Shown: positions 8,775 to 18,869 of the stretch, in pieces
Position numbering within the stretch: position 1 is the stretch's first letter
Layout: each line of letters opens with the position of its first letter
DNA from: Salinarchaeum sp. IM2453
GTDB taxonomy: Archaea > Halobacteriota > Halobacteria > Halobacteriales > Salinarchaeaceae
DNA length: 64,000 bases
Reading direction: 5' to 3'
Assembly: GCF_019693215.1 (NCBI RefSeq)
Contig: NZ_CP081183.1
Location: 248,001 to 312,000, forward strand
The notes under the pieces: generated by a model
Told to the model about the DNA's origin: nothing
Database searches by the model: none
Seen by the model: the letters and a program-made list of their open reading frames with translations, nothing else
Translations under genes and position numbers: made by a program

Positions 8775-8891
8775 ATGAGTACAGGTACAGGACTGAATAA
8801 TCAAAACAAAGATATCCGTATAAGGAACTTGTTAACCACTCCAGATGAAGCCCCGGGCAATCGTCGTGACCACCTGTACAATGGTTTTTGA
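8775..8891 (+). CDS. Possible 38-residue small protein ahead of the pilus-like cluster
   Basis: ATG at 8775 opens a 38-codon frame ending at TGA 8889-8891, 30 bases before the first clear gene of the cluster. The peptide begins MSTGTGLNNQ and ends RDHLYNGF, with a charged middle. An AT-rich TATA-like stretch (aatttatatatg) lies at about 8714-8725, upstream. No family is recognised. It could be a genuine small leader gene or chance; conservation between species would decide. Confidence 0.3.
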   Translation: MSTGTGLNNQNKDIRIRNLLTTPDEAPGNRRDHLYNGF

Positions 8892-8921
8892 AGGATAACG
8901 AGGGCAATCAAAGCCAGACCA

Positions 8922-9317
8922 ATGGGATGCAATAATACATCAGAGTTCAACCAGACAGGTACAGCAGAGACGACCGACAAAGACGCAGAGATACAACGAC
9001 TTGAGAAACGGGTTGCAGAACTTGAAGCAACCGTACAGTCGTTTGAATCATACATCAGCCATATTGAAGAAACAGATGGAGTAGTGGAGCGACGAGCCAA
9101 TGTAGCACTCGCAGCCGTAGATCGGCTTGAAAAAAGAGTCAACACAATTGAATCCGAGCTAGAACAAGATACACAGATAACAGAACCCAATCAATCGTAT
9201 TCTACATCACCTCCGCAAGAGGATAAAACAGAATCGCAATTTGATGCAGTTCTTGGAAACAGTGGATCATCACGAGAAACAGCAGATATCATCAAGCGGA
9301 TTCAGGGCAAGCTATGA
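8922..9317 (+). CDS. Coiled-coil protein, first gene of pilus-like cluster (DUF7310-like)
   Basis: A 131-residue soluble protein. Residues about 20-85 form a strong predicted coiled coil (AEIQRLEKRVAELEATV, later AAVDRLEKRVNTIESEL). A low-complexity Ser/Pro/Gln linker follows, then a short C-terminal amphipathic segment (TADIIKRIQGKL). It resembles a haloarchaea-only family (DUF7310, name from memory) always found next to the ATPase/TadC genes. Its stop overlaps the start of the next gene by four bases (ATGA), indicating translational coupling. It might be a cytoplasmic adaptor of the ATPase; that is inference from position. Confidence 0.65.
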   Translation: MGCNNTSEFNQTGTAETTDKDAEIQRLEKRVAELEATVQSFESYISHIEETDGVVERRANVALAAVDRLEKRVNTIESELEQDTQITEPNQSYSTSPPQEDKTESQFDAVLGNSGSSRETADIIKRIQGKL

Positions 9318-9994
9318 TTCGAGTTGTGCTTGCTGTTTTGACGACGCTTGCACTGTTTGGTATATCATTACCAGCGATTGAAAGTGTCCAAACAAGCCAG
9401 ACAGAAGACGCTATAGAAGCAGAACTACAGACACTTGATCAGACAGCAAATGAGCTATTAGAGACAGAAGAAGAGATTGAAGCACCAGGATCGCGTAGCA
9501 CGGTGTCAATTGAGCCACCAGAAGCAAGTATGACGCATGCTCCGGTCAAGTATATTAATATTTCCCCGGACGAATTTCGATATCAGGTAGATGGAGGAGC
9601 TGAGCGGACAATTAATCCAGAGACACCGTTTATCCGATCCGCTGGAGCACAGACAGAGAAGATAATAATCAGCGGCAGTCAGGCTGAGAAACTCATACTG
9701 GAACCAGTAACAGTCGACGACACACAAAAGGTTCACATCAAGCGACTTGGTTCAGATATTGATTTCAAACAATCAACTAACGAAACATCAAGGTCCGACC
9801 CAATAGATGACAGAGATGCAGTAAGCCGAGATCCAAACAAGGGAACAGAAGACAAAACAGAGGAAAGAGCCTCAAGACCAGAGCAAAAAATCTCGCAACA
9901 CGATCCAAACAAAAACGAAGAAAGTCAAGATGATTCACTGTTCGACCGGTTGACCGGAGCGGTTGATCGCGTCCTTGGGTTTATACCGTGGTAG
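9314..9994 (+). CDS. Membrane-anchored protein of pilus-like cluster (DUF7311-like)
   Basis: A 226-residue protein beginning with a hydrophobic segment (MIRVVLAVLTTLALFGISLP) that would anchor it or act as a signal sequence. The central domain (about 60-150) looks like a small beta-rich module; a disordered, charged region rich in Asp, Glu, Lys and Ser follows, and the end is amphipathic (LFDRLTGAVDRVLGFIPW). It belongs to a haloarchaeal family seen only in this cluster (DUF7311 from memory). It is coupled to the preceding gene by an ATGA overlap, and the ATPase gene begins 17 bases after its stop. Possible role: periplasm-facing or cytoplasmic scaffold of the apparatus. Confidence 0.65.
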   Translation: MIRVVLAVLTTLALFGISLPAIESVQTSQTEDAIEAELQTLDQTANELLETEEEIEAPGSRSTVSIEPPEASMTHAPVKYINISPDEFRYQVDGGAERTINPETPFIRSAGAQTEKIIISGSQAEKLILEPVTVDDTQKVHIKRLGSDIDFKQSTNETSRSDPIDDRDAVSRDPNKGTEDKTEERASRPEQKISQHDPNKNEESQDDSLFDRLTGAVDRVLGFIPW

Positions 9995-10010
9995 GAAGCC
10001 AACCCATTTT

Positions 10011-11903
10011 ATGTTGAATCTCATCAAGCGATTTCAAACATCTTCCTCTGGATGTACATGTAGGATTGCGGATGGAGGTGAGACACTCAATGCAATATCA
10101 TGTAGTGGTGATTTAAGCACATCGCCACAGTGTCGGAAGACAGCAATCAAAGCGGTTACGGGAACACAACTATCAAAGCTTCGTGTAGTTTCCTCAGGCA
10201 TCGAGCGAGTATATAACGAACAGACGGTTAGGTTTCTCAGGGCCGCTGGTGAATTTGCGACACTTGTCAAAGAGTACGACCAAACACTTGCCGCCAAATC
10301 ACTGACAGATCCGTTAGAAGCAGCAGCGGCAGCCGATGCTAGACCAGATCCAGTGAGGGATATTGCAGCAGAGACTGGGTTGGTTGAGCTCGCATCATCT
10401 ATTAACGACTACCAGCATGGATTCACTCCAGGGATAAAACCAACAGTTGCCGATGCAGAAATTGTTCACACCCTGCCTGAGGCAGCACAAAAAACAGCCG
10501 AAATAGAGCTACCGACTGACGGAAAAGCACGAATCTTTGAGACTCTCAAGCAGGAAACTGACTATTATCAGGTGCTGCCGGTTGAGTTTCAAATGGAGAA
10601 AGCAGCACTGCGGGTATTACAGGATGCATATGACTGGCTCGCTGAACATGCTACGAAAAGTACGTTGTCTGCTATGGTACAGGCAATAAGAAATGTAAGT
10701 GACGGTGGTGATGAGTTGAATGACGTATCAATTCGAACATTAGCCAAGGTTCTTCAGAAACATACACATGGATATGGGATTATTGAAGACCTCTTTGCAG
10801 ATCCAGCAGTGGATGATGTGTATGCAACTGCACCTGCAGCAGAAAATCGGTTATGGATCGTGCGGAGTGGACAGACACTACAAACAAATATCAGATTAAG
10901 TCAAAGTGGAGCTGAAGCAATCGCATCACGCCTGCGACGAGAGAGTGGTCGAGGATTCTCTCGGGCAGCCCCTACATTGGATGCAACGGCGGATCTATCG
11001 CATGGACAAGCACGGGTCGCTGCCGTCGCTGATCCAGCCACAGATGGGATTGCGTTTGCATTCAGATCAGGGTCGAAGCAAGCCTTTACACTTCCACGAT
11101 TAATTGCAAATGGGACCGTATCTGCAAGGGCTGCAGGATTACTTTCAACGGCTGTTCGGCGAGACGCAGCAATGCTAATCGGGGGAACAAGAGGAGCAGG
11201 AAAAACCACGCTACTTGGCTCGTTACTTTGGGAATTGCCACAGTCAGTGCGGACAATTACAATTGAGGACACACCCGAATTACCAATCGATGCTTTGCAG
11301 GCACACGATCGAGATGTACAGCAATTACAGACAAGTCTTGATGACGGGCCAGGAATTGATCCGACAGAAGCGCTGCAAACAGCACTTCGGCTTGGTGAAA
11401 GCGCATTAGTACTTGGAGAAGTCAGAGGTGAAGAAGCAGCAGTTCTCTATGAGGCAATGCGGGTAGGAGCAAGTGGCTCAGCAGTATTAGGTACAATCCA
11501 CGGAGATGGAGGCAGGGACATCAAACAACGAGTGACGGGCGATTTGAATGTATCAGAGCCATCATTTGCAACAACAGATCTAATTGTTACTCTTGAGCAG
11601 CACCAAGCACCATCAGGTGAGCAGACTCGACGCGTTAAGCGTATTGAGGAGGTGATTGGCACTGAGCAAGTTCGCTTCGAACCGCTATTTGCGCTTGATG
11701 AGGGAGAGCTACAGCCAACAGGTCGCATTGACCGCGGAAACAGCCATCTAATCGATCAATTAGCAGCCTCTGACGAGACATATGCTGAGATACGGACAAA
11801 GGTAAATCAGCAAGGCGAGCTGTTACATACACTCGCCAGTGGTGGAGAAACAGCACCAGAACATATTACAACTGCATACGCACAGCAAGGAGGGGCAGTA
11901 TGA
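10011..11903 (+). CDS. VirB11/TadA-type secretion ATPase
   Basis: Hexameric motor ATPase of the type II/type IV pilus and secretion family (PulE/VirB11/TadA), expected to power pilin assembly or secretion at the inner face of the membrane. In 630-residue numbering: Cys15, Cys17, Cys31 and Cys41 at the N-terminus suggest a metal site; an N-terminal domain runs to about 340; Walker A is GGTRGAGKTT at 391-400; the Asp box is TIEDTPELP; Walker B-like ALVLGEVRGEE is near 465-475; the His box is LGTIHGDGG. ATG 10011 (MLNLIKRFQ) is chosen over an in-frame start at 9963 lying inside the previous gene. The end overlaps the TadC gene by four bases. Confidence 0.88.
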   Translation: MLNLIKRFQTSSSGCTCRIADGGETLNAISCSGDLSTSPQCRKTAIKAVTGTQLSKLRVVSSGIERVYNEQTVRFLRAAGEFATLVKEYDQTLAAKSLTDPLEAAAAADARPDPVRDIAAETGLVELASSINDYQHGFTPGIKPTVADAEIVHTLPEAAQKTAEIELPTDGKARIFETLKQETDYYQVLPVEFQMEKAALRVLQDAYDWLAEHATKSTLSAMVQAIRNVSDGGDELNDVSIRTLAKVLQKHTHGYGIIEDLFADPAVDDVYATAPAAENRLWIVRSGQTLQTNIRLSQSGAEAIASRLRRESGRGFSRAAPTLDATADLSHGQARVAAVADPATDGIAFAFRSGSKQAFTLPRLIANGTVSARAAGLLSTAVRRDAAMLIGGTRGAGKTTLLGSLLWELPQSVRTITIEDTPELPIDALQAHDRDVQQLQTSLDDGPGIDPTEALQTALRLGESALVLGEVRGEEAAVLYEAMRVGASGSAVLGTIHGDGGRDIKQRVTGDLNVSEPSFATTDLIVTLEQHQAPSGEQTRRVKRIEEVIGTEQVRFEPLFALDEGELQPTGRIDRGNSHLIDQLAASDETYAEIRTKVNQQGELLHTLASGGETAPEHITTAYAQQGGAV

Positions 11904-13603
11904 TTAATCGGTCATTACAGGTCCTTGCTAAAGCATTTCCGTTTGATGTTAACGGTGATAAAGAACTACAGCAAGCTCTTCGCTTTCTAGATAGCGATTT
12001 ATCTACGAAAACAGTGATTAAAGCAGGGTATGTGACAGCATTCCTGACATGTATGTTACTGACCCCACTGGTACATCTTGTCCCTACTGGACACCAGATT
12101 GAATATCTAATTGGGATATTGTTGATCGCAATTGTCGCTGGACAATTAATATTCAAATACCCGCTTATAATGGCAACACTGCAGCAAACGACAGCACTCG
12201 GGACGGCCCCAGCACTTATTGGACGTGCAATCCTTCGAATGCGGATCGATCCATCGGAAGAAACTGCGGTTGCATTTGCAGCAAAAACCGGAAATGACAG
12301 ACTGTCAAAAAGCCTCTCGAAGCACATTAACCGTGCTGCTGGAGAACCTGGATCAGGGCTTGATACATTTGCAAAAGAATGGCAGCAATGGTTTCCAGCG
12401 TTAGGTCGTGCAGCACAGTTACTTGGAACAGCTGGGTCTGCTCCGCCTGCACAACGGGAACGAGCATTAAATAGAGCACTATCTGCCGTGCTGAACGGAA
12501 CGAGTGGCGAACTCCGTGCGTTTGTGACAAACGTCAATGGACCAGCAACAGCACTCTATGCATTTGGGGTATTGATACCGTTAGCGCTGGTTGCTGTGCT
12601 TCCGGGAGCACATGCCGCTGGTGTTACAATTACAATGCCGGTTATTGTGCTTATCTATAATGTCATCCTTCCAGTTGCTCTGCTATCTGCCTCAGTATGG
12701 TTGTTATTACGACGCCCAGTCGCATTTCCACCACCACAGGTTACAGAAGAGCATTTAGATAAAACACGGAGCAAATGGTACATCATTGGGCTCGGTGTTT
12801 GCACTGGGGGTGCCGCTGGAGCAGTGAGTAAGATGCTCATTGGCCTATGGACAGTTCCAATTTCGGTCACAGGAATTGGAGTTGGATCGACGCTCGTTCT
12901 CTGGTACCGACCACATACGAAAGTTAGAGATAAGGTCCGAGAAGTTGAGGCTGGACTGCCAGATGCTCTGTATTTAATTGGGCGACAGGTAGATGAGGGC
13001 ACATCAGTCGAGCGAAGCATCGCTGAAGCAGGAAAGGGGTTGCAGGACGAGACAGGTAAGCTACTAACGGATGCTGCACGACGACAAGAGGTGCTTGCTG
13101 TGGGTATTCGAGAGGCGTTACTTGGTGAACAAGGAGCTCTGACACAGCTCCCCAGCCGACGAACTAAAAACTTAGCATCACTACTTTCTATTGCCAGTAA
13201 AGAAGGTCAGCCAGCAGGACATGCAATCGTAGCTATGGCAGACCATCTTGATGAGTTGCAGTCTGTAGAGCAAGAAGCCAGACACGAACTAGCCAAAGTC
13301 ACAAACACACTTACCAACACAGCTGCAATTTTTGGACCGCTGGTAGCCGGATCAACAGTAGCGCTTGCCGAAGGTATGCATACATTTGGCGAAGGAGAAG
13401 ATATTCAAACAATCGCGGTTAGCGAGCTAGGACTGGCGATTGGCGGGTACGTACTCTTGCTTGCTGTGGTTTTAGTCGGATTATCGACAACGCTCAAGCA
13501 TGGGCTTGATCGGCCGACAATCGGGTACGGAACGGGTGGTACGTTAATCAGCGCAACAACTGTCTTTTTTGTAGCATACTACGGGACAGAATTACTGCTT
13601 TAG
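11900..13603 (+). CDS. TadC/PilC-type membrane platform protein (T2SSF)
   Basis: Polytopic membrane protein of the type II secretion F family, the platform on which the ATPase acts in pilus and secretion machines. It has 567 residues with hydrophobic segments near residues 45-75, 80-95, 210-235, 240-265, 300-325, 480-510 and 540-567. Two cytoplasmic helical T2SSF domains lie between them, the second with the typical GLPDALYLIGRQVDEG and HLDELQSVEQEARHEL. The duplicated architecture matches archaeal PilC/FlaJ relatives. It overlaps the ATPase stop (ATGA), so the two are made together. Downstream are pilin-like genes, preceded by a new promoter. Confidence 0.85.
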   Translation: MINRSLQVLAKAFPFDVNGDKELQQALRFLDSDLSTKTVIKAGYVTAFLTCMLLTPLVHLVPTGHQIEYLIGILLIAIVAGQLIFKYPLIMATLQQTTALGTAPALIGRAILRMRIDPSEETAVAFAAKTGNDRLSKSLSKHINRAAGEPGSGLDTFAKEWQQWFPALGRAAQLLGTAGSAPPAQRERALNRALSAVLNGTSGELRAFVTNVNGPATALYAFGVLIPLALVAVLPGAHAAGVTITMPVIVLIYNVILPVALLSASVWLLLRRPVAFPPPQVTEEHLDKTRSKWYIIGLGVCTGGAAGAVSKMLIGLWTVPISVTGIGVGSTLVLWYRPHTKVRDKVREVEAGLPDALYLIGRQVDEGTSVERSIAEAGKGLQDETGKLLTDAARRQEVLAVGIREALLGEQGALTQLPSRRTKNLASLLSIASKEGQPAGHAIVAMADHLDELQSVEQEARHELAKVTNTLTNTAAIFGPLVAGSTVALAEGMHTFGEGEDIQTIAVSELGLAIGGYVLLLAVVLVGLSTTLKHGLDRPTIGYGTGGTLISATTVFFVAYYGTELLL

Positions 13604-13659
13604 GCACTACGAGCACATTCAGTCCAGTTTCTTGGTCTCTTAGTGGAGACTGTATACAG

Positions 13660-13668
13660 ATTTATAAG
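13660..13668 (+). promoter_or_regulatory. Internal TATA box for the pilin-like genes
   Basis: The sequence tttataag is centred about 26 bases before ATG 13691, the distance expected for a leaderless haloarchaeal transcript beginning at that ATG. It lies in the only real gap (87 bases) inside the cluster, so the pilin-like genes may be expressed separately from the motor genes. Confidence 0.55.
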
Positions 13669-13690
13669 TGAGATGGCGGCCAATATCGCT

Positions 13691-14161
13691 ATGCACGGAC
13701 CACCAATCCAGGCCTGGTACGTTTTTGTTGCTGTCTCTCTCGTTAGTATTGCTATTGTTGGGGTAGCCATTGAGGTGACCCCGACTTCAAAACCACAAGC
13801 ACAGTCGGTAGCAGAGACAATCGATAGTGTCGCTGCAAGTCCACCACCAACAACCGGAAAACATCAGACAGATGCAGAGTCAATGCGCGTCACCCCCCGG
13901 TCTGTTGAATTACAGAAAAATGGAAAAAGAGCCTATGCAACGTTTCAAATCAGTACAGTAACTCCAACCGTGCACAATGCAACGCTTCAGAAAGTGCTAC
14001 AGGGAGTTCCTCCAAGCCAAGTATATGAGACTGAAACGGCATTTGCAAACGCTACCAGAGAGGCACAACTCCAGAATTCGACATGGCAGCCGCTAAACGA
14101 GGAAGTAACAATTAGATCTGTTTCATGGGGTGAGACAGATGCAACGCTGGTCGGCAAGTAG
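13691..14161 (+). CDS. Single-pass membrane protein of pilus-like cluster (DUF7283-like)
   Basis: A 156-residue protein starting MHGPPIQAWYVFVAVSLVSI, i.e. a short N-terminal tail and one membrane helix (about residues 9-30) followed by an exported domain. The N-terminal helix with an outside globular part is pilin-like in layout, though no clear prepilin peptidase site is seen. The start at 13691 is preferred over longer frames beginning 13643 or 13673 because a TATA box sits 26 bases upstream of it. It corresponds to a haloarchaeal cluster-specific family (DUF7283 from memory). The 3' end overlaps the next gene. Confidence 0.65.
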   Translation: MHGPPIQAWYVFVAVSLVSIAIVGVAIEVTPTSKPQAQSVAETIDSVAASPPPTTGKHQTDAESMRVTPRSVELQKNGKRAYATFQISTVTPTVHNATLQKVLQGVPPSQVYETETAFANATREAQLQNSTWQPLNEEVTIRSVSWGETDATLVGK

Positions 14162-14534
14162 AGGTCAGGTAGAGCCTCTTGCAGCACTGGTTGCAGTTAT
14201 GGCTGTTTGTACTGGTATAACGATGTATGCGGGCGTTGCGGTAGAGTTTACAGACCAAAAAGAAGATCGGTCAGTAGCTGATCCAACACTTGACAGAGTA
14301 TCGACCGACCTCCTGACAGATGGAAGTATTGATCCCTCAGAACTATCAGACAAAAGCTACCTCGCTCCGCGAGATCATAAGCTCGCTATTACAGTTGAAA
14401 CACCGCAACGGAAGTGGGACTGTGGTAAATCTGCCCCATCAACGGCAGAATCCGCTTCAAAGCCAGTGAGTGTACAGGTTGATCGAGGAGTCATCGAGAC
14501 AGGGACACTGACCGTGGAGGTATGGAATGCATAG
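14139..14534 (+). CDS. Pilin-like protein (DUF7285-like)
   Basis: The N-terminus MQRWSASRGQVEPLAALVAV shows a basic residue and Gly just before a Gln/Glu-containing hydrophobic helix, close to the haloarchaeal class III (type IV pilin-like) signal pattern, with possible cleavage after SRG. One membrane helix is followed by about 100 exported residues with a Cys at about residue 93 in the WDCGKS segment. The ATG at 14139 is used; a GTG three codons earlier is possible. It overlaps the genes before (23 bases) and after (8 bases), so the group is tightly coupled. Haloarchaea-only family (DUF7285 from memory). Confidence 0.65.
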   Translation: MQRWSASRGQVEPLAALVAVMAVCTGITMYAGVAVEFTDQKEDRSVADPTLDRVSTDLLTDGSIDPSELSDKSYLAPRDHKLAITVETPQRKWDCGKSAPSTAESASKPVSVQVDRGVIETGTLTVEVWNA

Positions 14535-15375
14535 GGATCGAGGTATCAGCACAGTGTTTGATGTACTGTTGTTTCTTTTAATCGTTAGTGCAGCTATTGG
14601 ATTGCTCGTCACTGGATACTCAGAGGAAAGCGAACAGCCTACGATGGAGACTGCATCAGATGTCGTGACCATCTTATCAACTAGCACCGAGACGATAGTA
14701 TATACTCCAGATCACTCAACAGTCAATACAACAGATATCGATACTAGATCCGACTATGGGACGGTTGCACACCTGTTGGCTACAGCAGCCGTTTTAGAAG
14801 CAGAAAAATCAGGAGAAGAGATTGCAGCCACGCCAGCGTATACACAGGCAGTAACAGAGGCAACCAAGGGTGCAACAGCCCCGGTTGAGGATCGAGTACA
14901 AGTCAGGGCAATTTGGGAGCCAGTTCCAGATGGCTCGGTAAAAGGAGAAGTTATCGTCGGGGATTCCCCTCCACCTGATAAAGATGTGCAGGCGGCGTCA
15001 ATCTCAATACCAGTTGCAACTACTGATACACCTGAGCAGGCAGAAAAGTCAACGCAAGCACTCAGTACGGTACTTGCTCAAGCGACCATTGAATCGCTCT
15101 TTGACACCCATCGGACAAAGACGGCAATGGAATCCAGTCATGATGAAGCAGAGATCAGTATCGCACGCTATCAGGATGCTGCCACGACGCTTGATACAGA
15201 TCTATCGATTGCGCTTGAACAGGAGGATAATAGCCTTGCAAGGTCAATACTTGTAGGTGCTCTTGAAGAAGAATACCGTCGTGATATCGTGAGAAACCCT
15301 GACTCAGTGTCTGATATTTCAGACAAAGCAGCGCCGACAGAGGTAACAATTGTGGTTAGGACGTGGTCAGCATGA
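14527..15375 (+). CDS. Pilin-like protein (DUF7284-like)
   Basis: The N-terminus MHRDRGISTVFDVLLFLLIV closely follows the archaeal pilin pattern: charged residues, Arg-Gly, then Ile/Val-Ser and an uninterrupted hydrophobic helix; cleavage after RG is expected by prepilin peptidase PibD. The remaining ~250 residues are acidic and exported, with a helical second half. It has 282 residues, larger than an ordinary archaeal pilin (about 130-170), so it is more likely a minor or pseudopilin. It overlaps the following large gene by ATGA. Family DUF7284 from memory. Confidence 0.65.
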   Translation: MHRDRGISTVFDVLLFLLIVSAAIGLLVTGYSEESEQPTMETASDVVTILSTSTETIVYTPDHSTVNTTDIDTRSDYGTVAHLLATAAVLEAEKSGEEIAATPAYTQAVTEATKGATAPVEDRVQVRAIWEPVPDGSVKGEVIVGDSPPPDKDVQAASISIPVATTDTPEQAEKSTQALSTVLAQATIESLFDTHRTKTAMESSHDEAEISIARYQDAATTLDTDLSIALEQEDNSLARSILVGALEEEYRRDIVRNPDSVSDISDKAAPTEVTIVVRTWSA

Positions 15376-18347
15376 AGTTAGCAGAAGATGAACGAGCGCG
15401 AGTTCCGTTTGCATTGATTGCAATACTGTTACTTGTCAGTGCTGGAACGGTTGTCTACGTTCAACCAAATGAAATCACTGTAGAAGATGAAACAGCAAAG
15501 GCGACTGAGCGGTCAGTTGCGGCCGCGGAGACAATTGTGCGAGATGCAACACAGGAAGCAGGGGCAATAGCAGCCAGTGCACCAGTGACTGATCCGGAGA
15601 AGGATGGATTTGGTCAGGTACTGGATGACAATCGGACATTTGAGTCATACTTTGAGTTGCTAACCTACAGAGAAGCCGAAGACCGGATGCAGGGCCATAC
15701 AGTTGAGATTGAAGAAACGAAGGCATCGATGACACTACCAGAGATCCAAGATACAACGACAGCCAAGCAAGCAATCGATAAAACAACAATTGAATCAGAT
15801 GGAGATGGAACAGTAACAGCGACAATTGAGGGGGTAAAATTGCAGGCAGAAAACGAAGAATACGAGGTATTCAATGAAACACGAACAATTTCAGTTACCG
15901 TTCCAACCCCGGTACTCATGATGCATGAGAAGGTTGAAAAATTTGAATCAAAATTAGATGAAGGGCCAGTTGCTAGAAGCGGCTTAGGAGCAGAGCTGTC
16001 AGGTCGGTTGTACGCAATGGCCTGGGCACGGGGGTATGCACAATATGGTGGTGCCCCAATCGCGGACGTGTTGAATCATGAGCACATTGAATTAGCAGCT
16101 GCTGGGAGTGCAATTGACCTACAAGAAGAGGTATTTGGGACAGCAGATCCAGAAGCAAAGGAAGGGCTTGTCAAAGCAGGAGCAGATCTTGCAGCGGATG
16201 AATTACTACCAGACCGCTGGAGCGGTATCGCAGATGCGGCACTGCCAGATCCAAATACCAATCCAGATTCAGCAGACGAAATTGATTCACCAGGGTTACA
16301 GAGCACAGAGATAAGTGTTGATATACTTGCTGATGAGGCCTATCACGAAATAGCGGTTAAAGGGGATACAGTTGAAACGATTATTGATGATGCACATGAG
16401 GTTGAAACGCGTATAGAAGCAGAAACCGAGAAAAAGCAGGTAAACCAACTTAGAGCTGAGAGTCCAAGAGGCCCAGAGTGGCAAAAGATCAGTGAAGAAT
16501 CATCCTTTGAAACAATCTCTGTCGAGCAGCGCGATGAGGCAGAAATTCCAGCAAGCGGCCACTGGCAAACGATCGAAACAAAACAGCGGACCGTTACAAT
16601 TGAGCGAACAGTTAATCGAACGTGGTTGAAAGGATCAGAACTCAGAGAGTCAACAGACATCTATGAGGAAACACATGCAGTTGGGATCGGAATATATGCG
16701 ACATCTCCATCGGTCGCACATGCTCCAGCAGAAGGGATTTATGACATAGATACACCAGGAAACCCACCATCAGGAGCTGTCGGTCCTTCTATCTCAGACG
16801 CTGCTATTGAGAAGCAATTAGACAAACGGGGAAGCGTTGACGAGGTTGCAGAAGAGGCAGTTGTTGATACGATCGATACAGAACCGAAGGTTATTGAAGT
16901 TGAGCCACCCGAAGCAGTACAAGCCTGGGTCTATGACGACATAGCGTCGCTTCGTGATACAGTACGTACTTTGAGTGTTGAAGTTGATCAAACAGAGATG
17001 GTAACCAGTGCACAGCCAACAAGTCAGCTGAAGACGGTTGTAGAAAAGCATGAGGAACAGTTGGTCAATAAACCAGATCAATACGAAAGTCGGGCACAGA
17101 AAGCGTTGATAGGTGCCAGATCTGCATATCTCGATCATCTACTGGACCATCTGAACGATGATACAGAGGAAACTGCCTCGATCCAAGATGCCTTGTCAGA
17201 CCAAATCGACCGAATTATATCAGGACCAGAAGCAGCAATTGACGACCTCATTCAACGAGGTATGGATCATACACGGCCAGAGCCAGCGGATATTACAGCA
17301 GATCCGCCAGCAGAAAATCTCTCGTTGGCTGTTGAAAGTGATCCGTCGCATTTGACAAAGGCAGAAGTCACAACGACATCACCACGTGTTGAAAGGGAAG
17401 AATACCACCCATTGTCGATGCGAACAGCAACAGTTGCATCACTTCCTGCAGATCGTATTGTTGAGGCGTTAGCTGACCGATTATTGACGAGTGACGAAAC
17501 CGTCTCACCAGAAGTTGCAGCTAGGGTAATGCTGCAGGCAGACAAAATTCCGGCGGACATAACGCCATCAGAACTTCAAGAAAACAAACAATCTCTGTAT
17601 AGCGAGTTAGAGACAGTCAAAACAGAAGCCAAACAGGAGGCAGTACAAGATCTTGCTGAGCCGACAACATTGGGGTATGTCGAGCGATACCAAGCGGTTG
17701 AAAAAGGACTGTCAAACTGGGATACTGTTGGTGGACAAATCCTTGCAATGAGCAATGGCACTGCAGCAGAGGCGATTGCTGAAGAAGTAGAAACAAAGGA
17801 TAAACGAACATACGCTGCAGATCGAGCTGAGTCGACACTACGAGTTACGTTTTCAGAACACCTGACTGATGAAGATGTTGAGATTCCTGAAGGGCCAGTA
17901 ACTGACGTTGCTGACAAAGCACGATCAGTCGCAGAGGATACAGCAGAAGACGTCATTGAAGATCACACTGAGAAGGTAAAAGATAGACTTGATCAACGTC
18001 TGAACGGAGGTTTATCAATGGCCCCTGCCGGGGTACCTCTGCTTCCAAAACCAGGAGCATGGTGGGCAACAGCAAATGCATGGACAGTTGAGTTGGAAGG
18101 TGAGTATGCATCATTTGCAGTTCGAAGTCCGCAGGGATCACCTGAAACAGGTGGACAAGTAACCTATGTCCGATCGAACGAAGAAGTAGAGATGGACATG
18201 ACTGGAAACGGGATGAAAGAGACAATTGGGTCATCGGAACGAATTTCATTTGACACGTGGACTACTGTGGTGGTTGTTGTTCCTCCCGGCAAATCAGGTG
18301 TCGGAAACATGGAATCTGATGGAATTGAATCCTCAAATGGTTGGTGA
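15372..18347 (+). CDS. Giant pilin-like exported protein (DUF7286-like), about 991 residues
   Basis: Start ATG 15372 overlaps the stop of the previous gene (ATGA); an upstream GTG at 15363 is less likely. The N-terminus MKLAEDERARVPFALIAILL is a charged tail plus one hydrophobic helix, pilin-like in layout. About 950 exported residues follow, very rich in Glu, Asp, Ala and Thr, mostly helical with coiled-coil stretches (e.g. residues 330-370 and 560-640). The last ~90 residues are more globular, with GGLSMAPAGVPLLPKPGAWW near residue 880. It would be the largest component of the apparatus, a candidate tip or stalk protein. Family DUF7286 from memory; function unknown. Confidence 0.65.
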   Translation: MKLAEDERARVPFALIAILLLVSAGTVVYVQPNEITVEDETAKATERSVAAAETIVRDATQEAGAIAASAPVTDPEKDGFGQVLDDNRTFESYFELLTYREAEDRMQGHTVEIEETKASMTLPEIQDTTTAKQAIDKTTIESDGDGTVTATIEGVKLQAENEEYEVFNETRTISVTVPTPVLMMHEKVEKFESKLDEGPVARSGLGAELSGRLYAMAWARGYAQYGGAPIADVLNHEHIELAAAGSAIDLQEEVFGTADPEAKEGLVKAGADLAADELLPDRWSGIADAALPDPNTNPDSADEIDSPGLQSTEISVDILADEAYHEIAVKGDTVETIIDDAHEVETRIEAETEKKQVNQLRAESPRGPEWQKISEESSFETISVEQRDEAEIPASGHWQTIETKQRTVTIERTVNRTWLKGSELRESTDIYEETHAVGIGIYATSPSVAHAPAEGIYDIDTPGNPPSGAVGPSISDAAIEKQLDKRGSVDEVAEEAVVDTIDTEPKVIEVEPPEAVQAWVYDDIASLRDTVRTLSVEVDQTEMVTSAQPTSQLKTVVEKHEEQLVNKPDQYESRAQKALIGARSAYLDHLLDHLNDDTEETASIQDALSDQIDRIISGPEAAIDDLIQRGMDHTRPEPADITADPPAENLSLAVESDPSHLTKAEVTTTSPRVEREEYHPLSMRTATVASLPADRIVEALADRLLTSDETVSPEVAARVMLQADKIPADITPSELQENKQSLYSELETVKTEAKQEAVQDLAEPTTLGYVERYQAVEKGLSNWDTVGGQILAMSNGTAAEAIAEEVETKDKRTYAADRAESTLRVTFSEHLTDEDVEIPEGPVTDVADKARSVAEDTAEDVIEDHTEKVKDRLDQRLNGGLSMAPAGVPLLPKPGAWWATANAWTVELEGEYASFAVRSPQGSPETGGQVTYVRSNEEVEMDMTGNGMKETIGSSERISFDTWTTVVVVVPPGKSGVGNMESDGIESSNGW

Positions 18348-18431: not shown

Positions 18432-18869
18432 ATGAGAGGGTTGCTCAATCAGGATCGGACTGATATTCCTCTGGGGGCTGCTGAAGACCGTTACAAAAGC
18501 TACATCGACGCAATCAGGCGGATTATTGATCAACATAATAGACAGAAAATACAGCAAGAAACTGCCCTTGATTTACCTCAAGTAATACGATTACAGAAGA
18601 GAAATCCACGAGAAATCACCATATATGAAGCAGCGACAGTAGAGGCACTTGTTGAGCCGCTTCCCCCACAGGAACTTGCATTACAGGCTCGAGAAACACT
18701 GGTGTTGGGAATGGCTGTTTCAGTCACAGACGTAAAATCACTTTTTCCAGAAGTCGAAGGGGTCACTTCAAAAGAGAAGTTGCAATCACTACTCGACGGT
18801 GAGAGATCCTGTAGTCTCACTCGTTACGCAGAAATTGAAGCAGCAGTTGCACGGCAACGATTAGCTTGA
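18432..18869 (+). CDS. Haloarchaeal protein of unknown function (DUF5791-like)
   Basis: A 145-residue soluble protein. The second half (ALQARETLVLGMAVSVTDV ... LQSLLDGERSCSLTRYAEI) matches my memory of the haloarchaeal DUF5791 family. The helical repeats with a Leu-rich centre could form a small DNA- or protein-binding helical bundle, but no active-site motif is seen. It lies 84 bases after the pilus-like cluster on the same strand. It overlaps the convergent gene on the other strand by nine bases at its 3' end. Confidence 0.55.
   Translation: MRGLLNQDRTDIPLGAAEDRYKSYIDAIRRIIDQHNRQKIQQETALDLPQVIRLQKRNPREITIYEAATVEALVEPLPPQELALQARETLVLGMAVSVTDVKSLFPEVEGVTSKEKLQSLLDGERSCSLTRYAEIEAAVARQRLA

What the first reader, a model, noticed from the sequence alone, without database searches (positions are those of the whole stretch)
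8775..18347. Same-strand cluster for an uncharacterised pilus-like or secretion apparatus
Seen: eight closely packed genes (many ATGA overlaps) with a VirB11/TadA-type ATPase, a TadC-type platform, a coiled-coil protein, a membrane-anchored protein and four proteins whose N-termini are a short charged tail plus one hydrophobic helix. Known: archaella, Aap/Ups and Pil systems all use this ATPase-platform pair, and I recall these accessory families (DUF7283-7286, DUF7310, DUF7311) only from haloarchaea, without known function. Inference: a distinct type IV pilus-like or secretion machine. No obvious major pilin, no prepilin peptidase and no archaellum genes are in the cluster.
Basis: partly seen in the sequence, partly recalled or inferred. 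Interest (0 to 1): 0.75.

Follow-up and report, generated by a model that had tools for sequence, protein, structure and literature searches.

The report
Haloarchaeal type IV pilus-like machine
The eight genes are the core of an uncharacterised hair-building machine found in most salt-loving archaea and, in rearranged form, in some methane-making archaea, and its missing main hair subunit and a DNA-pump-like motor turn up in a second gene pair elsewhere in the same genome, which suggests, but does not show, that it handles DNA.

Summary
Eight same-strand genes (8922-18347, not from 8775) encode DUF7310, DUF7311, a TadA/VirB11-type ATPase, a TadC-type platform, DUF7283, DUF7285, DUF7284 and DUF7286. 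DUF7286 occurs in 226/294 Halobacteria genomes, and the gene order is nearly fixed. Three proteins start with a prepilin-like signal; in DUF7286 it is the most conserved stretch of about 1000 residues.
The system is not haloarchaea-only. Methanogens carry 7285-7284-7286 homologues, and the sister clade of this ATPase (SH-aLRT 100), with the same N-terminal Cys motif. This matches 'subclade 4F' of a 2016 pilus census.
New here: the 'missing' major pilin and a partner motor. A prepilin-like protein with a beta domain (DUF7382) and a short HerA-like ATPase form a second locus, 33 kb outside the window. Among 140 Halobacteria genomes (three decayed loci set aside) the pilin is in 108/108 with DUF7286 and 1/32 without; HerA is in 104/108 and 0/32. 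Methanogens repeat this (32/35 against 0/29 for each).
Best reading: a type IV filament machine with a DUF7286 tip complex and a HerA motor, probably DNA-handling (inferred). Adhesion only or protein secretion are not excluded. No function has been tested.

The parts
8922..9317 (+). DUF7310 coiled-coil cytoplasmic protein (131 aa); likely the arCOG07564-type coiled coil of subclade 4F
   Evidence: Pfam PF23991 2e-14; profile hits coiled-coil genes beside the pilin mC in methanogens, E 4e-8 (L269) and 7e-7 (L272)
9314..9994 (+). DUF7311 single-helix membrane-anchored protein (226 aa), homologue of methanogen prepilin-like mA
   Evidence: PF23993 2e-36; hhalign with mA 94%, E 1e-7; mA profile hits DUF7311 members at 4e-7; found next to HerA in L246
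10011..11903 (+). TadA/VirB11-type filament-assembly ATPase (630 aa) with N-terminal CxC..C..C motif; the ORF runs from TTG 9963
   Evidence: T2SSE 1e-16; best solved relatives are the archaeal type II/IV secretion ATPase 2oap, CpaF and FlaI; Walker A GTRGAGKT, Walker B region GEVRG, HGD box; clade
11900..13603 (+). TadC/T2SSF-type membrane platform protein (567 aa)
   Evidence: homologues in nearly all system loci and beside the sister ATPases of methanogens (about 1e-100); alignment members match PF00482 T2SSF, best 7e-7
13691..14161 (+). DUF7283 single-helix exported protein (156 aa), no clear prepilin site
   Evidence: PF23954 3e-46; N-terminal alignment
14139..14534 (+). DUF7285 minor pilin-like protein (131 aa), MQRWSASRG/QVEPLAAL
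   Evidence: PF23956 1e-32; [R/K][G/A]-Q-x-E-P conserved, homologues in methanogens
14527..15375 (+). DUF7284 minor pilin-like protein (282 aa), MHRDRG/ISTVFD
   Evidence: PF23955 9e-68; AlphaFold2 pLDDT 89 with N-terminal helix plus alpha/beta domain, no PDB fold match
15372..18347 (+). DUF7286 large pilin-like protein (991 aa), ERA/RVPFAL; predicted filament-tip protein
   Evidence: PF23957 2e-284; N-terminal block 92% against 51% mean column identity; AlphaFold2 pLDDT 78, no PDB fold match
18432..18869 (+). DUF5791, co-directional neighbour, judged not part of the machine
   Evidence: 289/294 Halobacteria, kept where the system is lost and encoded elsewhere in some genomes that have it

Best explanation
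A type IV filament machine of the archaeal VirB11/TadC kind ('subclade 4F'). SHOWN by comparison: the ATPase, platform, five membrane-anchored exported proteins and coiled coil form one conserved operon; a pilin-like protein mC (DUF7382 domain) and a short HerA-like ATPase form a second locus inherited with it. INFERRED: the genome's single class III peptidase trims 7285, 7284, 7286 and mC; 7285, 7284 and the large 7286 form the priming/tip complex (as GspI-J-K or PilV-W-X-PilY1 do elsewhere), with 7311 and 7283 as accessory subunits; the ATPase, docked on the platform, then polymerises mC under that tip; DUF7310 is a cytoplasmic adaptor or regulator. The HerA-like hexamer is the unusual part. 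HerA-fold ATPases move DNA, and DNA import in Sulfolobales pairs Ups pili with HerA-type CedB/CedD, so I commit to a filament that captures or moves DNA between cells or from outside. Probabilities: type IV filament machine 0.9; HerA a functional partner 0.85; DNA as substrate about 0.45.
For: Prepilin-like N-termini conserved to methanogens in 7285, 7284 and 7286; the 7286 motif is its most conserved stretch and was the only pattern the finder chose. ATPase clade with methanogen sister, SH-aLRT 100. mC follows TadC directly in Methanocella-like genomes, lies next to DUF7310-like genes in Methanosarcina-like ones and beside the operon in some haloarchaea. Co-inheritance: mC 108/108 with against 1/32 without; HerA 104/108 against 0/32; within-genus co-variation in five genera; mC and HerA starts within 3 kb in 91/104; 32/35 against 0/29 for each in methanogen and related genomes. 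The neighbour DUF5791 does not co-vary. Deletion scars G012 and G067 lost HerA, and mC is truncated or gone. HerA keeps GKRGYGKSYT and LLIDEAH motifs; its relatives by sequence are HerA-type ATPases, most of them DNA translocases.
Against: No experiment. The ComEC channel domain is essentially absent from Halobacteria and no CedA-like channel was identified. HerA is missing from one genus that keeps the rest (g21: G036, G037, G049, G100), so it is not strictly required. CedB and CedD scores are weak (22.5 and 25.8 bits, cut-offs 700 and 600). PMC7749143 reports that pibD does not affect mating in Haloferax volcanii, so a role in cell-fusion mating is unlikely. Two of the five anchored proteins (7283, 7311) lack a clear prepilin site.
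Confidence: 0.47

Rival explanations
1. An ordinary adhesion or surface-sensing type IV pilus. DUF7286 is the adhesive tip, mC the shaft, and the HerA-like ATPase regulates or powers the machine (for example as a retraction or remodelling motor) without touching DNA.
For: Other haloarchaeal type IV pili with tested function serve adhesion (PMC6491452, PMC4858521). DUF7286 is large, exported and extended. In methanogens its gene is followed by an ArtA-sorted sarcinarray surface protein, and its C-terminus occurs in cassette-like arrays, as expected of a variable surface-exposed tip.
Against: Gives no reason why a HerA-type ATPase should be inherited with the system across two archaeal groups.
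Confidence: 0.33
2. A short pseudopilus secretion system: the ATPase and platform push a pseudopilus of 7285, 7284, 7286 and mC to expel proteins through the envelope.
For: A set of minor pilin-like proteins including one very large subunit recalls GspI-J-K of type II secretion (established knowledge); no abundant PilA-family major pilin is in the cluster.
Against: Archaea lack an outer membrane and no secretin or channel gene is linked; no substrate gene is conserved beside the operon in haloarchaea; a dedicated pilin mC exists.
Confidence: 0.15
3. The second locus is only a co-inherited passenger: mC and HerA belong to another process lost in the same lineages.
For: Correlation is not function; in haloarchaea the two loci are usually far apart.
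Against: mC sits directly after TadC, with HerA close by, in Methanocella-like genomes; DUF7311 sits beside HerA in G050; losses are concerted within five genera; DUF5791 shows that the pattern is not shared by any neighbour.
Confidence: 0.05

Closest known systems
Archaeal type IV pili, 'subclade 4F' of Makarova, Koonin and Albers 2016 (PMC4858521)
   Same: VirB11-family ATPase with an N-terminal Cys-rich region, TadC, a halobacterial coiled-coil protein, a mostly stand-alone pilin that is tandemly duplicated in methanogens and lies next to other components in Methanocella; present in Halobacteria and Methanomicrobia
   Different: The census text names no HerA-like partner, and I could not map its arCOGs to DUF7283-7286/7311 (supplements not readable). 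Its linked S-layer-like and FtsZ-like genes were not seen as operon members here.
Sulfolobales Ups pili with the Ced DNA importer (CedA/CedB/CedD)
   Same: Type IV pili working with HerA-fold ATPases; DNA exchange
   Different: HerA here is short, without the N-terminal domains of CedB/CedD, far below their cut-offs; CedA counterpart not found; different pilins
Bacterial Tad/Flp (type IVc) pili
   Same: ATPase closest to the TadA/CpaF group (TIGR03819 142 bits; CpaF structures); TadC-type platform; minor pilin-like N-termini resembling TadE/TadF (recalled resemblance)
   Different: Below the TadA cut-off (373 bits); no Flp, RcpA secretin or TadZ in the locus; one fused platform gene
Archaellum
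   Same: ATPase and platform core
   Different: No FlaH, FlaF, FlaG or archaellins in the cluster; FlaI model 101.7 bits against cut-off 550

Membership tests
Archaeal type IV pilus systems (VirB11/TadC) | VirB11/TadA-type ATPase adjacent to a TadC/T2SSF platform | tested here: met
Archaeal type IV pilus systems (VirB11/TadC) | Proteins with class III (prepilin) signal peptides | tested here: met
   by conserved sequence motif only, in 7285, 7284, 7286 and mC; not by peptidase assay
Archaeal type IV pilus systems (VirB11/TadC) | Prepilin peptidase in the genome | tested here: met
   one A24/Arc_PepC_II gene at G000:C1:931800 region
Archaeal type IV pilus systems (VirB11/TadC) | A filament is assembled | not testable with these tools
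   needs microscopy
Subclade 4F (PMC4858521) | Distinct ATPase clade shared by Halobacteria and Methanomicrobia, with Cys-rich N-terminus | tested here: met
   I could not place the paper's own sequences in the tree
Subclade 4F (PMC4858521) | Dedicated, mostly stand-alone pilin, tandemly duplicated, next to other components in Methanocella | tested here: met
   mC; identity with arCOG02981 inferred, not looked up
Subclade 4F (PMC4858521) | Halobacterial intracellular coiled-coil protein | tested here: met
   DUF7310
Subclade 4F (PMC4858521) | S-layer-like gene in the locus | tested here: inconclusive
   none in the haloarchaeal operon unless DUF7286 was counted as such; sarcinarray surface gene in methanogens
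Archaellum | FlaI-type ATPase with FlaH, FlaJ, FlaF, FlaG | tested here: not met
   NF058587 101.7 bits, cut-off 550; no such genes in the cluster
Bacterial Tad pilus | TadA equivalog score, Flp pilin and RcpA/TadZ | tested here: not met
   TIGR03819 142.1 bits, cut-off 373; no such genes in the locus
Ced DNA import | CedB or CedD equivalog ATPase | tested here: not met
   22.5 and 25.8 bits, cut-offs 700 and 600
Ced DNA import | CedA-type membrane channel | not tested
   no CedA search was run
Bacterial competence pilus | ComEC channel in the genome | tested here: not met
   PF03772 in 6/143 Halobacteria, all weak, one genus; not in G000
Type II secretion | Secretin and GspE/GspG homologues | tested here: not met
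   GspE model 23.6 bits, cut-off 630; no secretin seen in the locus

The most novel reading that the evidence does not exclude
A DNA-transfer or DNA-uptake apparatus of Halobacteria and methanogens: a type IV filament with a three-subunit tip (DUF7285, 7284, 7286), a dedicated DUF7382-type pilin and its own HerA-family DNA pump, ancestral to both groups, whose tip protein is diversified by silent cassettes in Methanosarcina.
Probability: 0.35. Interest if true: 0.85.

Novelty: new variant of a known kind. Interest (0 to 1): 0.62.

Why it matters
It turns seven unexplained protein families, one unlinked pilin and one orphan HerA-like ATPase into a single machine that most sampled haloarchaea carry, with a clear gene list. 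How archaea take up or exchange DNA is open: PMC10133366 states that archaea lack identifiable ComEC homologues and that the DNA transporter is unknown. A pilus co-inherited with a HerA-type motor in genetically tractable Haloferax and Methanosarcina makes one answer directly testable. If it proves an adhesion pilus instead, it would still show a HerA-family ATPase working with a type IV filament, which to my knowledge has not been described outside the Ups/Ced pairing.

Tried and rejected
DUF5791 as a ninth component: rejected, near-universal and kept by genomes that lost the system. Methanogen protein mC as a homologue of DUF7283: rejected (hhalign E 0.58). DUF7283 or DUF7285 as homologue of methanogen mB: only weak (E 0.002 and 0.0006), left open. 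DUF7284 and DUF7286 as duplicates of each other: not supported (E 0.05). Structure-based identification: Foldseek of both models gave no PDB match below E 0.1, so neither a pilin fold nor an enzyme fold could be named; the DUF7286 model is only moderate (pLDDT 78, pTM 0.52). Viral carriage: no relative in viral contigs. Defence-system reading of the HerA gene: PADLOC HerA models hit only as family-level similarity, and no NurA-like or nuclease partner was recognised beside it in the neighbourhoods read (not tested by profile). ComEC-type competence: channel absent. One fragment row (L155:5100-5200) was put into alignment A6 by mistake; it does not affect the T2SSF result. Literature searches for DUF7286 found no paper and for DUF7382/arCOG02981 with haloarchaeal terms nothing on this system later than the 2016 census.
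Full report
OBSERVATION. The stated start 8775 is wrong because the frame is interrupted. Pfam gives DUF7310, DUF7311, T2SSE, DUF7283, DUF7285, DUF7284 and DUF7286. The platform protein has no Pfam hit alone, but 4 of 11 members of its alignment hit T2SSF, and the same profile finds the proteins beside the sister ATPases of methanogens. DUF5791 follows but is a neighbour: 289/294 Halobacteria have it, including those without the system.

LINKAGE. DUF7286 is in 226 of 294 Halobacteria genomes and 59 of 78 genera. Profiles run over fetched loci show the order 7310-7311-ATPase-TadC-7283-7285-7284-7286 almost everywhere; in 69 full-flank named loci (Haloferax, Halorubrum, Halorussus, Natronomonas, Haloquadratum, Halobacterium and others) the ATPase and platform are linked in 67 and the full order is kept in 60.

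N-TERMINI. 7285 ([RK][GA]/Q-x-E-P), 7284 (R[GA]/x-S-T-V-x-D) and 7286 ([DE]R[GA]/RVPFAL) have prepilin-like starts kept in methanogen homologues; some haloarchaeal 7284 proteins start directly at the hydrophobic part. In 7286 this block is the most conserved of about 1000 residues (mean column identity 0.92 against 0.51), and it was the only pattern chosen for the collection scan. 7283 and 7311 have plain signal anchors. 7311 matches the methanogen prepilin-like protein mA (hhalign 94%, E 1e-7, against 0.2-0.8 for unrelated controls). Cleavage itself is inferred.

BEYOND HALOARCHAEA. Divergent DUF7286 occurs in 35 non-halobacterial genomes of a 295-genome phylum sample, and Methanosarcina acetivorans rings among the named controls. 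In Methanocella-like genomes (identified from memory of contig length, unverified) the order is mA-mB-7285-7284-7286 followed by a sarcinarray surface protein. The ATPase is elsewhere in those genomes, with its platform. In two trees (80 rows FastTree; 55 rows IQ-TREE PMSF) all window-type ATPases form one clade (99), and their sister is exactly the ATPases of six trio-bearing methanogen genomes (joint clade 100), apart from 37 other archaeal ATPases including the other three pilus ATPases of this genome. Both groups share an N-terminal Cys cluster that the others lack (one methanogen row, L134, could not be scored there because of a stray Walker match, but its sequence shows the motif). The program warns of long branches at the midpoint root, so the position relative to the remaining ATPases is not claimed.

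THE MISSING PILIN AND THE MOTOR. In the Methanocella-like genomes the gene after TadC encodes a small prepilin-like protein (here mC: [RK][GA]/hEGLPhRLhh plus a beta domain). Its profile finds one main copy per haloarchaeal genome; in this genome at C1:214442-215011 (minus), 33 kb upstream of the window, with DUF7382 (4e-20) and Ig-like matches. Divergent from it is a 367-aa HerA-like ATPase orthologous to one lying near ATPase/TadC/mC in Methanocella (55% mean column identity, invariant Walker motifs). In 143 Halobacteria genomes, setting aside three decayed loci: mC in 108/108 with DUF7286 and 1/32 without; HerA in 104/108 and 0/32 (Fisher 3e-30 and 2e-27, not corrected for phylogeny). Paralogous HerA hits of 230-254 bits were counted as absent; split or partial hits in G006, G011, G112 and G045 as present. 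Within five genera (g5, g6, g12, g13, g30) all three vary together; g36 has one exception (G110, mC only). mC and HerA start within 3 kb of each other in 91 of 104. In 64 other genomes of the phylum: mC 32/35 against 0/29, HerA 32/35 against 0/29 (one 251-bit hit in G316 counted as paralogue, the split G426 hit as present). The loci also trade members: DUF7311 beside HerA in G050, DUF7310-like coiled coils beside the tandem mC pair in Methanosarcina-like genomes. Two decayed loci show the operon's 5' end joined to the end of DUF7286 (G067 L271, G012 L084), with HerA gone and mC truncated or gone. I regard this as strong evidence of one functional system.

STRUCTURE. AlphaFold2 gives DUF7284 a confident model (pLDDT 89: N-terminal helix plus alpha/beta domain) and DUF7286 a moderate one (78: helical region, long beta hairpins, C-terminal beta domain). 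Neither resembles a solved fold. This excludes little but gives no support to an enzyme reading.

MECHANISM. See the best explanation: class III peptidase processing (one such gene), tip complex of 7285-7284-7286, mC shaft built by ATPase and platform, HerA motor. Shown: co-inheritance, linkage, motifs, phylogeny. Inferred: every physical step and the DNA substrate. For DNA: HerA-type ATPases are mostly DNA translocases (established knowledge; solved relatives), and Sulfolobales couple Ups pili with HerA-type CedB/CedD for DNA import (PMC11868833); type IV-like pili are needed for transformation in Methanococcus maripaludis (PMC10133366). Against: no ComEC, weak Ced scores, a genus without HerA, and no effect of pibD on Haloferax mating as reported in PMC7749143.

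KNOWN OR NEW. The 2016 census of archaeal pili (PMC4858521) describes 'subclade 4F' with a Cys-rich ATPase N-terminus, a halobacterial coiled-coil protein, and a stand-alone, tandemly duplicating pilin tied to the system through Methanocella. All fit. The HerA-like partner is not mentioned in its text in this role, and the searches run found no later study of the system. Hence: new variant of a known kind, with an unreported motor and a completed parts list.

Noticed in passing
L091:11197-17536 (G490), L096:14124-17389 (G410), L113:84-4384 (G454): Tandem arrays in Methanosarcina-type genomes that alternate sarcinarray surface-protein genes with signal-less copies of the DUF7286 C-terminus (80-84% identical to residues 1078-1369 of the full gene in L091), with mosaic DNA identity of 73-95%; they look like silent cassettes for varying the tip protein and its partner.
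   Followed up: partly
L271:5787-7430 (G067) and L084:11902-12780 (G012): Deletion scars in which the start of the operon (DUF7311 or DUF7310 remnant) is joined to the C-terminal part of DUF7286, with DUF5791 intact beside them.
   Followed up: yes
L119:13297-13779 and L154:12575-13480: A small A24 prepilin peptidase gene (L119 confirmed by Pfam; L154 by eye) lies between the HerA-like ATPase and a further pilin-like gene (mD) in Methanocella-like genomes, a possible dedicated peptidase that the haloarchaeal loci lack.
   Followed up: partly
L266:43-804 (G468): A TctA-like transporter gene (recognised by eye) lies two genes from the pilin mC; TctA-like proteins were implicated in archaeal natural transformation (PMC10133366). 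Could be coincidence.
   Followed up: no
genus g21 (G036, G037, G049, G100): Keeps the operon and the pilin mC but has no HerA-like orthologue; unexplained.
   Followed up: no
window 8922-9317 and homologues: The length of the coiled-coil protein DUF7310 varies widely among open frames (124 to over 500 aa), partly through uncertain start sites.
   Followed up: no
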